Part shown: in pieces, positions 18,523 through 56,424 of the stretch
Numbering within the stretch: position 1 is the first letter of the stretch
Layout of the letters: each line of letters opens with the position of its first letter
NCBI RefSeq assembly: GCF_013343005.1
Contig: NZ_CP054491.1
Span: 3,020,501 to 3,084,500 of the forward strand
DNA: 64,000 nucleotides
Origin: Candidatus Reidiella endopervernicosa
GTDB lineage: Bacteria > Pseudomonadota > Gammaproteobacteria > GCF-013343005
Reading direction: 5' to 3'
Position numbers and translations under genes: made by a program
Notes under the pieces: model-generated
The model's database searches: none
Told to the model about the DNA's origin: nothing
What the model saw: only the letters and a program-made list of their open reading frames with translations

Positions 18523-19603
18523 ATATAAAACCTGACTTCAAAGAACTATCAATACTGAAGACATTAGTAGGCGCATTCCTAATTCCGTGGTGGAATCATT
18601 ACTTCTTTTTAAGCATCTAGCCATCCCTACTGCTGGAATACTATTAGTAATCGCGATCGCTCAAGCCATACCTGGACAACCAGAAGATGCAAAAGTGACT
18701 TTTACTATTCTAGCTATTGCAACTGCTTGCTTTTCAGTCCTTTTCGCAGTCACATGCCACCGCCTCATACTACTTGGCGAAAAGTCAAAACATCAAGCAT
18801 TACCGGGGAGTCGCTATTTTTGCGAAAGTTTGTTTTGGGCATCCAAGCCCAAGCAAACAGCAAAACTTAACGCGACCATTTATGCCTACGGCGCCCCGAC
18901 GTCCTGCGTACGTTGCGTAATCACCTCTTCGCGGCTCTACACAACTCCCTCAGTGACTCTACGCCGACATAAAGCCGCTGCTGCATCTTCTTCGTCGTCC
19001 GCTCGCGCTCTCAACTACGAATAGGCAGACGGCGTCGACTATCGGGGACTAACCGCCCTCACTTCGCTCTCCATGGCGGTCAGCGGAAGCCACGGCTTTT
19101 AAGCGCCTAATTCGTTTCCTTATCACCGTAGTAGTCCTAATAGTCACAGAGGGATTCATAAAACAGCATTCACTCACGCATTCAGCTGGTCATTAGACAC
19201 ATACCAATTTGACAGCTTAATAAACCCAATTGACGAAACCACAAGTGAAGTAACAACCTCTTTTAAGCTGCTCTATACGCTAGTTACACTCCCGCTCTAT
19301 ATGTTGTCGCCCGACTATCCCTACTACTCCCATCAATTGCGATTGACAGACCATTAAGCTTCTCGGAAGGATGGGGTCTAACCAAAGGCAATGGATGGAA
19401 AATGTTCGCAGTAGTATTCCTGTTTCCTTGGGCACTTTTTGTTGATCTCAATCATTCCGATACCGAACCTTGGCGATTGGGGCTGGCTATTACTACTCCC
19501 ATTTATCGCAATAGTATTTGTCGTTGAAATTAGCGCTCTTTCACTGGCATTCCGTCAACTTACACAAGAACAAAAGCTAGTGCGGGGTAATTCGAGTAGT
19601 TAG
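18504..19603 (+). pseudogene. polytopic membrane protein, broken by frameshifts and a 280-bp insert
   Basis: Joined across frames, the region encodes a membrane protein. It starts MQGGGKHIKPDFKELS, continues through VGAFLIPWWNHYFFFKHLA, several hydrophobic spans, the insert at 18806-19085, then ATAFKRLIRFLITVVVLIV, FSEGWGLTKGNGWKMF and a C-terminal span ending at 19603. At least four single- or double-base shifts occur (one at the T5 run near 18605, others near 19180, 19310 and 19480). The spread of lesions suggests true decay, though some may be sequence errors. I do not recognise the family; the LTKGNGWKMF region resembles conserved integral membrane proteins of unknown function. Confidence 0.6.
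18806..19085 (+). mobile_element. 280-bp structured insert, copy A
   Basis: This segment (GGGAGTCGC ... GGTCAGCG) recurs at 35638-35915 with over 90 percent identity by eye. It lies exactly between codons of the broken membrane-protein gene (CCG before, GAA after), with no target duplication. Both ends can fold: the left ~65 bases form a long hairpin (GTCGC ... GCGAC, with inner TTGGGC/GCCCAA), and the right end has ACCGCC pairing with GGCGGT. There is no protein gene of note. The family is unassigned; candidates are an IS200/IS605-type non-autonomous element or an intron-like RNA. Confidence 0.65.
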
Positions 19604-29304: not shown

Positions 29305-29380
29305 TGGTGCCGGAAATAGGAATCGAACCTACGACCCACGCGTTACGAGTGCGTTGCTCTACCAACTGAGCTATTCCGGC
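29305..29380 (-). tRNA. tRNA-Thr (anticodon CGT)
   Basis: The 76-nt cloverleaf reads GCCGGAA on the acceptor arm, GCTCAGTTGGTAGAGC as D-arm, anticodon loop CTCGTAA with anticodon CGT, TTCGATT as T-loop and an encoded CCA end. It resembles thrW of enterobacteria. No integrase or attachment repeat is seen next to it. Confidence 0.95.
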
Positions 29381-34377: not shown

Positions 34378-37070
34378 ATGAACAACTATCGCAACATACA
34401 TTCCAGTCGCGGCTTCACCTTGATCGAAGCGCTCGTCGCCCTGATCGTGCTCGCTGTGGGCCTGCTGAGTCTGGCGCAGTTCCACACCAACCTTGTCTCC
34501 TCCGGCGCACTCACCAAAACCCGCACCGAGGCGATCAACGTCGCTCAGGAGAAGCTCGAGGAGCTGCGAAACAACATTGAGGTGACTGATTACACCGGCC
34601 TGGTCTCCTCGACTTCAGGCACACAGGAGACGGTCAACGGCACCAACGCCATCTACACTGTTAGCTGGACCGTCGGCAACGTCCCCAACAGTCTGCAAGC
34701 GAAGGTGATCACCGTTTCAGCCAGCTGGACCGGCAGAGACGGCACCACTCAGACTATCTCTCTGGTCAGCAATATTGCCTGGAACAACCCGGTAACCAGT
34801 GTGGCGCTCGCCGGAGCCGGCGTTGCCAATCCACTAATTGAAACCCCCAAGGGATCGGCCGAGTTTGTTTACGATAGAACCTATACCGACGACCAGGGAA
34901 ATCCTAGTCTCCCTCAGAGTGCGACCGATAATGATGACGGCACCCAAACCTATCAGGATGGTGACACCTACGAACTGATCGATGAGGCGACGGGCGATGT
35001 CATCCTTGAGCTCGACTGCGCCAATAACACCTGCGCTGGTTTTGTCACCATCAGCGGCACGGTTGTGATCGACGACGGTGACGTTACTGCAACCGACGTC
35101 AATGTCATGGCCTCCGACGTCGCCTTCTGTGCCCGCTCTATCGACGACACAACCGCAACCGACGTCGTCGTCTACCCAACGGGTGCGACTGGTAACAACA
35201 TTGACTACACAGCCTTCACCTACACCTGCTATCTGGGTCACGGCTGGTACGGCAATATCGGTATCCTGCGCACCGACAACGCCAACTCCAATGAACGGGT
35301 CTGCCTCGGCGACCCGACGGTTGCCTCGAACGACACCTACTATCCGACCGTTAACAACAACCGCACCTATCGCGGCCTCTTCAACCTCTCGACCGATAAT
35401 GGCACTCCTCCGATCTACTACTCCTTTGGTGCCGACGCAGGCACCACCATTACCGGCCACGACTTCTTCCTCGATACCATTACCGGTAATAACGTTACGG
35501 GTGCCGACTGCATTACACCGATGACCAATGACTACGAGGGCAACGCCGACGGCACCGGCACCGGCACCAACATCTTTGCCGGTGTTCCTGACAACTTCTA
35601 CTGCCTCAACCCGCATATCACCACACCGACCGGACCTGGGAGTCGCTATTTTGCGAAAGTTTGTTTTGGGCATCCAAGCCCAAGCAAACAGCAAAACTTC
35701 ACGCGACCGTTTATGCCTGCGGCGCCCGACCGTCCTGCGTACGTTGCGTAATCACCTCTTCGCGGCTCTACACAACTCCCTCAGTGACTCTACGCCGACA
35801 TAAAGCCGTGCTGCATCTTCTCCGTCGTTCGCTCGCGCTCTCAACTACGAATAGGCAGACGGCGTCGACTATCGGGGACTAACCGCCCTCACTTCGCTCT
35901 CCATGGCGGTCAGCGTTTGATGCGGCCTCTAGCTGCGCCATTGATCCGACCAATTCGAACCTTACCGTTCACACCGTTACGGGTGAGATTGTTGCTACCA
36001 CAGAGGCGGCGTTCAACAACATGACTGATAACACCTCTGTCGTCACCTCGGACGGCGAGACATGTGGCCTGGCTGTAAACGATACCTACGGTAGAGACGG
36101 TGTCTTTGCCACCTACGAATGTACCGCTAATGACTGGGGAGGCGGCTGGAGTGGAACCATCAGCGTCAACACCCCTGACACTGCCGCCTGTACGCCTGAA
36201 AACTACGACTACACGACAACCCTGTTGGAAGCAGACGCAACCAACAAGGACTTCGAATGTGTTGAGCAGATTTCTACCACTACCTTCGAAGTTTCCGGCA
36301 TCGTCACTGGTCTGGGTGACACACCTGTAGCCGAGATTTCTGCGACCTCGGATGCAGAGTGCTCAATCAGATCGGGTGGCTTCTCCTGCCAGATGAGCTA
36401 TCTATCCAACACCAGCGGCTGGACGGGATCGATCATGCTCTATCCAGCACTTGCCGGAGCAGAGTGCACCCCATCCTTCTACACGCAGGACACTGCGATC
36501 ACGGAGGACCCGGGCACATTCAACTTCGAGTGCACCGTGGCTGAAACCGTAACCTTTGAGATCATCGGGACGATCTCGGGAATTGGCGACACCTCAACCG
36601 CTGAGCTCTACGGCTCACCCGATGCAATCTGCGATTTCAAGACTGGAGGTTATAAGTGTGATGTGAGTTACCTCTCTACCAGCGATGGATGGATCGGTGG
36701 AATTTCACTCTACAAGAGTGGATACCTCTGCGAACCAAGCTCGCACTATGCAGAGGCACCGTTAACATCTGATCCAGGCAGCTACAACTTCAGCTGCACC
36801 GAGGAGCTGATCCCGCAGCAGTTCACTATCTCGGGTAGTGTTGATGCAGGCAACATCGCATCAGTCACCATCAGTGATGGCGGAACCTGCAGCAATACCA
36901 ACAGCACCTACAGCTGTACCACTGCCATCTTCTACGGTGACACCTGGTCCGGCTCGGTCTCGATGTCCACCAACAAGACGGTATGTGACAGCCCGGCGAC
37001 ATTTACCAATATCACCGGCGACACCACCTACAACTTCAATGGTGAAGTACAGGCGAGGAACTGCCCATAA
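34378..37070 (+). CDS. giant PilV-type minor pilin with Cys-rich repeats, interrupted by a 278-bp insert
   Basis: The N-terminus is a PilV prepilin (SSRG^FTLIEALVALIVLAVGLL; AQEKLEELRNN). The frame runs to 35637, is interrupted by the insert at 35638-35915, and resumes in frame at 35916 to the stop at 37070; joined, it encodes about 804 residues. The C-terminal part has about five related modules of 85-95 residues with conserved cysteines and a GW.G.I core (for example TSGWTGSIMLYP and SDGWIGGISLYK). Unless the insert is removed, the product is cut at about residue 457. The ATG at 34378 is chosen for its AGGAGAT ribosome site. Confidence 0.75.
35638..35915 (+). mobile_element. 278-bp structured insert, copy B, inside pilV
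   Basis: It is over 90 percent identical by eye to 18806-19085, in the same orientation relative to the host gene's coding strand. It starts GGGAGTCGC and ends GGTCAGCG, and lies exactly between a CCT and a TTT codon. There is no target duplication. Left-end hairpin (GTCGC ... GCGAC with inner TTGGGC/GCCCAA) and right-end hairpin (ACCGCC/GGCGGT) are conserved in both copies. Differences between copies are scattered single bases, so neither is a very recent copy of the other. Confidence 0.7.
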
Positions 37071-56347: not shown

Positions 56348-56424
56348 CGGGGTGTAGCTCAGCCTGGTAGAGCACTGTCTTCGGGAGGCAGGGGCCGGAG
56401 GTTCGAATCCTCTCATCCCGACCA
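56348..56424 (+). tRNA. tRNA-Pro (anticodon CGG)
   Basis: The 77-nt cloverleaf has acceptor CGGGGTG/CATCCCG, anticodon loop TTCGGGA with anticodon CGG, TTCGAAT as T-loop and an encoded ACCA end. It lies 3 bp after the ispB stop codon. Confidence 0.95.

What the first reader, a model, noticed from the sequence alone, without database searches (positions are those of the whole stretch)
35638..35915. Structured 278-280-bp element inserted in two unrelated genes; precise removal restores both reading frames
Copies at 18806-19085 and 35638-35915 are near identical and in sense orientation in both hosts. Both lie exactly between codons, with no target duplication; deleting the segment joins ...TGP to FDAASS in pilV and ...QALP to EATAFK in the membrane protein. 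Both ends fold into hairpins and there is no protein gene. Known explanations would be an IS200/IS605-type non-autonomous element (no duplication, hairpin ends) or a small self-splicing intron. I cannot match group I or II core motifs by eye. If it is removed at RNA level, the 804-residue PilV would be made in full.
Basis: partly seen in the sequence, partly recalled or inferred. Interest (0 to 1): 0.8.

Follow-up and report, generated by a model that had tools for sequence, protein, structure and literature searches.

The report
High-copy folded mobile element without genes
The two 280-bp inserts belong to a gene-less jumping DNA of about 250 copies in this bacterium, with relatives in many other gammaproteobacteria; it behaves like a parasite that moves as a folded single strand at replication forks, and it is not an intron that the cell removes.

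Summary
The host genome carries at least 249 near-identical copies (about 2% of 3.45 Mb). Relatives occur in 31 of 369 sampled gammaproteobacterial genomes and in no Rfam family.

The intron reading fails. About one third of clearly interrupted ORFs (19 of 58) carry the element antisense. Orientation follows replication: in 188 of 219 copies the same strand lies in the lagging-strand template, whatever the gene direction.

On the complementary strand, insertion requires only a C four bases before the joint (217 of 219 copies), with no duplication.

In 26 relatives, 30 of 51 predicted pairs show two-sided compensatory changes.

Best explanation: a non-autonomous transposon moving as single-stranded DNA, as IS200/IS605 elements do. 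The enzyme is not identified. The genome has no reverse transcriptase, IscB or IS91 transposase, and of its three Y1 genes two are broken, one by this very element. The whole-length conserved fold is unusual and unexplained.

The parts
35635..35915 (-). Element copy 1, corrected boundaries (281 bp). The minus strand is the proposed folded/transposed strand.
   Evidence: boundary by frame test plus dprA/hypF/aminotransferase alignments of sister copies
18803..19085 (-). Element copy 2, corrected boundaries (283 bp). Interrupts a short membrane-protein ORF.
35879..35913 (-). Left-end (LE) hairpin: CTGACCGCC...GGCGGTTAG with a conserved G.T pair and an inner GNA triloop (GCGAAGC in most relatives); starts 2 nt from the 5' end of the active strand
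   Evidence: pairs of columns 2-11 with 33-42, with compensatory changes at columns 6-8 and 10
35708..35878 (-). Central branched fold (stem CCCGAT/GTCGGG closing two further arms), including the conserved blocks GTAGAGTCA.TGAGG and GACGCAGGACGGTCGGG
35642..35707 (-). Right-end (RE) hairpin: GTCGC...GCGAC with a long inner stem
   Evidence: columns 256-340; linked T-A to C-G changes among own copies
35916..35919 (-). Target flank of copy 1: top TTTG, i.e. minus strand C-NNN immediately 5' of LE
   Evidence: logo; +4 G in 207 of 219 copies, 217 of 219 after shifting the joint by one base
19086..19089 (-). Target flank of copy 2: top GAAG, same rule

Best explanation
The segment is a non-autonomous mobile DNA element that moves in trans as a single strand, in the manner of IS200/IS605 (HUH, Y1) elements. 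Shown: copy number, exact ends, target rule, replication-strand bias, conserved fold of one strand. Inferred: a single-stranded DNA intermediate, an HUH enzyme acting in trans, and that insertion inactivates the interrupted genes.
For: At least 249 copies, by pattern count plus sampled copies. 188 of 219 copies lie opposite to fork direction (binomial p about 1e-28), with dnaA at 573.7 kb and GC skew switching at about 0.6 and 2.2 Mb. Orientation follows replication within both gene classes: head-on genes 33:3, co-directional genes 16:6. The only target requirement lies 5' of one end on one strand, C at -4, 217 of 219; the same AGCG-NNN-G rule is seen in nearly all relatives. The RE 3' end, CCGR, also has C at -4. 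Precise insertion without duplication in dprA, hypF and an aminotransferase and in a RAYT gene. Three head-to-tail dimers are explained by insertion into the junction of an older copy. Covariation supports the complementary strand: consensus -44.4 versus -25.1 kcal/mol, 128 G.T versus 9 A.C cells. IS608 inserts into lagging-strand template and family orientation follows replication (PMC5371812, PMC6006769).
Against: No active transposase was found. Y1 hits are a RAYT broken by a frameshift and by this element (L031), a frameshifted RAYT (L033) and a more distant intact Y1 gene with its own repeats (L032). L031-like RAYTs are only moderately enriched in element-bearing genomes (20 of 31 versus 128 of 338). 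There is no 4-nt guide between the cleavage point and the LE hairpin, as IS608 has. The internal fold is conserved across genera, which an end-recognised passenger would not need. The single-copy fold energy is not better than shuffles (z -0.5).
Confidence: 0.66

Rival explanations
1. A structured RNA, transcribed from the complementary strand, is the mobile form: it reverse-splices or is reverse transcribed into lagging-strand template DNA, as group II introns do.
For: Whole-length conserved branched fold with compensatory changes and fixed G.U positions; exact ends with no truncated copies among 219; strand polarity would also fit group II-type retrohoming into the lagging template.
Against: No reverse transcriptase family hit in the complete genome; no group I, II or other Rfam match at E<=10; no base-pairing-length target, only one fixed base; copies in the putative RNA-sense orientation are not enriched in genes.
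Confidence: 0.12
2. An intron or IVS-like segment removed at RNA level, so that pilV and other genes are expressed in full.
For: Removal of the segment restores reading frames, which any transposon without target duplication would also give.
Against: 19 of 58 clear interrupted ORFs carry it antisense; orientation follows replication; the frame is restored only because the left boundary is off by exactly one codon; dprA and hypF each carry two copies, as expected for genes already dead; its own RAYT host gene also has a frameshift.
Confidence: 0.03
3. Mobilised by another DNA enzyme (for example an IS110 recombinase, a tyrosine recombinase acting on folded single strands, or an uncatalogued HUH protein), the fold being its recognition RNA or DNA.
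For: No intact cognate Y1 found; IS110 elements carry a structured RNA and lack inverted repeats (own knowledge).
Against: IS110 targets are guided over about 10 or more bases, whereas one base is fixed here; replication bias favours a single-strand route.
Confidence: 0.17
4. IscB/HEARO-type element: the fold is an omega RNA whose guide is the flank.
For: Topology fits: RNA sense strand with the flank directly at its 5' end.
Against: No IscB in this genome and in only 1 of 31 carriers; no HEARO match.
Confidence: 0.02

Closest known systems
IS200/IS605 family (IS608, ISDra2) and their non-autonomous derivatives
   Same: No duplication, no terminal inverted repeats, hairpins near both ends of one strand, target motif flanking only one end, lagging-strand-template bias (PMC5371812, PMC6006769)
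   Different: No transposase or accessory gene; target reduced to one fixed base (C-NNN) instead of TTAC-like tetranucleotides; LE hairpin starts 2 nt from the end, leaving no guide tetranucleotide; whole interior structurally conserved
REP/BIME/REPIN with TnpA-REP (RAYT)
   Same: High-copy, folded, gene-less, strand-specific hairpins with irregular pairs; RAYT genes exist in the genome
   Different: REPs are 21-65 nt, mostly extragenic, with a GT[AG]G foot and CT cleavage (PMC6006769, PMC8266576); this is 280 bp, mostly in genes, without that foot, and the closest RAYT genes are not flanked by it
Group II intron / ORF-less group II intron
   Same: Exact ends, no duplication, replication-strand bias, structured
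   Different: No domain V or Rfam match, no reverse transcriptase, no exon-binding target
IscB/HEARO omega-RNA elements
   Same: Structured RNA-like sequence at a transposon end
   Different: No IscB, no Rfam match

Membership tests
IS200/IS605 (as non-autonomous member) | No target duplication, no terminal inverted repeats | tested here: met
IS200/IS605 (as non-autonomous member) | Subterminal hairpins on one strand | tested here: met
IS200/IS605 (as non-autonomous member) | Conserved short target immediately 5' of LE and a similar motif ending RE | tested here: inconclusive
   Only C at -4 is fixed, on both LE flank and RE end
IS200/IS605 (as non-autonomous member) | Guide tetranucleotide 5' of the hairpin foot | tested here: not met
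   LE hairpin foot is 1-2 nt from the end
IS200/IS605 (as non-autonomous member) | Active strand in the lagging-strand template | tested here: met
   188 of 219
IS200/IS605 (as non-autonomous member) | Cognate Y1 transposase with the same ends | tested here: not met
   No autonomous copy seen; no recurrent gene next to relatives
REP/RAYT | GT[AG]G foot, 21-65 nt, REPs flanking the RAYT gene | tested here: not met
Group I / group II intron | Conserved catalytic core or domain V | tested here: not met
   Rfam scan E<=10
Group I / group II intron | Insertion in sense of host genes | tested here: not met
Group I / group II intron | Spliced transcripts | not testable with these tools
   No RNA-seq
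Group I / group II intron | Reverse transcriptase available for mobility | tested here: not met
IscB/HEARO | HEARO RNA and IscB in the genome | tested here: not met
IS91 (Y2) | Y2 transposase in the genome, GTTC/CTTG target | tested here: not met
   No Y2 in G000; different target
IS110 (bridge RNA) | DEDD recombinase and a target guided by the RNA | not tested
   No family search left; the one-base target argues against

The most novel reading that the evidence does not exclude
A new class of gene-less mobile element in which one 280-nt strand, conserved in structure over its whole length, is itself the working part (RNA or DNA) and inserts at almost any C-NNN on lagging-strand template, moved by a previously undescribed enzyme or activity.
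Probability: 0.2. Interest if true: 0.9.

Novelty: new variant of a known kind. Interest (0 to 1): 0.66.

Why it matters
It is a widespread, undescribed (as far as Rfam and the held papers show) high-copy element that interrupts many genes and records replication direction in its orientation. If a Y1 enzyme moves it, it is an extreme relaxed-target case of single-strand transposition. If not, the whole-length conserved fold points to a new mobile RNA or DNA. About 250 sequenced insertions with exact ends make target and strand rules directly testable.

Tried and rejected
Rfam, gathering and E<=10: no relevant hit. IscB, IS91 Y2 and reverse transcriptase as mobilisers: absent from the genome. 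RAYT as partner: no element flanks the closest RAYTs; the distant match L066 near a RAYT in G014 lies beside a tRNA gene, not at the transposase ends. Search for a recurring gene next to relatives: none. Plasmids and phages: none; two viral contigs carry a member. Relatives outside the class: one marginal hit in a phylum-wide draw. YC as part of the target (my own first reading) was rejected by the frame test. Energy of a single copy is not above shuffles, so the structure claim rests on covariation only.

Full report
Observation. The two copies in the window are real and 96.4% identical. In the host genome (G000, one contig of 3,446,950 bp, window at 3,020,501-3,084,500) a 29-base right-end pattern occurs 215 times, 108 and 107 per strand, with no match of the reversed control. 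Among stretches fetched around listed copies (603 kb in all) 219 full-length copies were found, of which 185 carry the pattern, so at least 249 copies exist. Copies differ from their consensus by a median of 7 positions; four pairs are identical and the median nearest neighbour differs at 3 positions, so activity is recent. Apart from matches cut by the ends of stretches, the only partial match lacked 14 bases at the left end.

Boundaries and target. Aligned junctions show YC or YCG before GGGAGTC and NNN-G after AGCG. To decide what belongs to the element, the coding frame was determined independently on each side of every copy: with YCG on the left, removal of GGGAG...AGCG restores frame in 45 of 58 cases, while copies with YC are most often off by two. 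So YCG or YC is inserted material. Alignments with solved structures agree: dprA, a class-V aminotransferase and both hypF sites each show exactly one extra residue at the junction. The element is therefore YCGGGGAGTC...AGCG, about 283 bp. In the target only the G at +4 on the right (C at -4 on the complementary strand) is fixed: 207 of 219, and 217 of 219 once ten copies are read with the joint one base earlier. No bases are duplicated or lost. Three head-to-tail dimers fit insertion into the junction of an older copy. The element has also entered a RAYT gene of the same genome, splitting it between residues aligned to 204 and 205 of a relative.

Orientation. dnaA lies at 573.7 kb, and GC skew changes sign near 0.6 and 2.2 Mb. 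[quoted passage not shown] This holds for genes facing the fork (33 of 36) and with it (16 of 22). Across 58 clear interrupted ORFs, 39 copies are sense and 19 antisense. An element spliced from RNA in one orientation would not be distributed like this. The interrupted genes I could recognise (dprA, hypF, sensor kinases, GGDEF/EAL-type proteins, a transporter permease, a sugar dehydrogenase) are dispensable types; this naming is by eye except where apply.

Family and fold. A relative from G015 used as query finds the family in 31 of 369 gammaproteobacterial genomes at 63-100% identity; named carriers include Thiotrichaceae and Chromatiales MAGs. Some of the 31 rest on short end matches only. 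Outside the class only a marginal hit appeared. The rule AGCG-NNN-G holds in nearly all relatives. G.T occurs in 128 pair cells and A.C in 9; since the structure was derived on that strand the count leans towards it, and the two energies are the fairer comparison. The left-end hairpin closes on a GAA triloop between G-C pairs, of the GNA type known as very stable in DNA (own knowledge). The fold of a single copy is not better than shuffles.

Mechanism. No duplication, one-sided short target, hairpins on one strand and lagging-template bias together are the signature of single-strand transposition described for IS608 and ISDra2 (PMC6006769, PMC5371812). I therefore commit to a non-autonomous element moved in trans as single-stranded DNA. 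What is missing is the enzyme. G000 has no reverse transcriptase, no IscB and no Y2 transposase. It has three Y1 hits: one is frameshifted and interrupted by the element, one is frameshifted, and one is a more distant gene with its own repeats. RAYT genes are enriched in carriers (20 of 31 against 128 of 338, p 0.006) but so are Y2 genes (14 of 31 against 66 of 338, p 0.002), so this may only mark mobile-rich genomes. The conserved interior is not explained by this model and keeps a mobile RNA, or another recombinase, open.

Comparison with known kinds. It works like IS200/IS605 but I do not file it as a member: the guide tetranucleotide next to the left-end hairpin and a cognate transposase were looked for and not found. 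It is not a REP or REPIN (size, foot and location differ), not a group I or II intron, and not HEARO.

Noticed in passing
L031 901-1878 (G000 3163157-3164134): RAYT-type Y1 transposase gene with a frameshift near 1481 and a full element copy inserted in it.
   Followed up: yes
G000 427026, 427519 and 2586527, 2586866: dprA and hypF each carry two element copies in the same orientation; the bacterium may lack natural transformation and hydrogenase maturation.
   Followed up: partly
G000 781286, 903177, 2950339: Head-to-tail dimers of the element with a one-base spacer, consistent with insertion into its own junction.
   Followed up: yes
L032 (G000 685802-689149): Intact Y1 gene of another group with nearby repeats encoding VGWAKRSVPI-like peptides, probably a separate REP system.
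   Followed up: no
L209, L235 (genome G023): Distant subfamily member at contig ends; 75 first-look candidates suggest another high-copy expansion.
   Followed up: no
L250, L254 (IMG/VR contigs): Element members on contigs classed as viral.
   Followed up: partly
window 29308-29380 (-), 56348-56421 (+): Two tRNA genes; no element at either.
   Followed up: no
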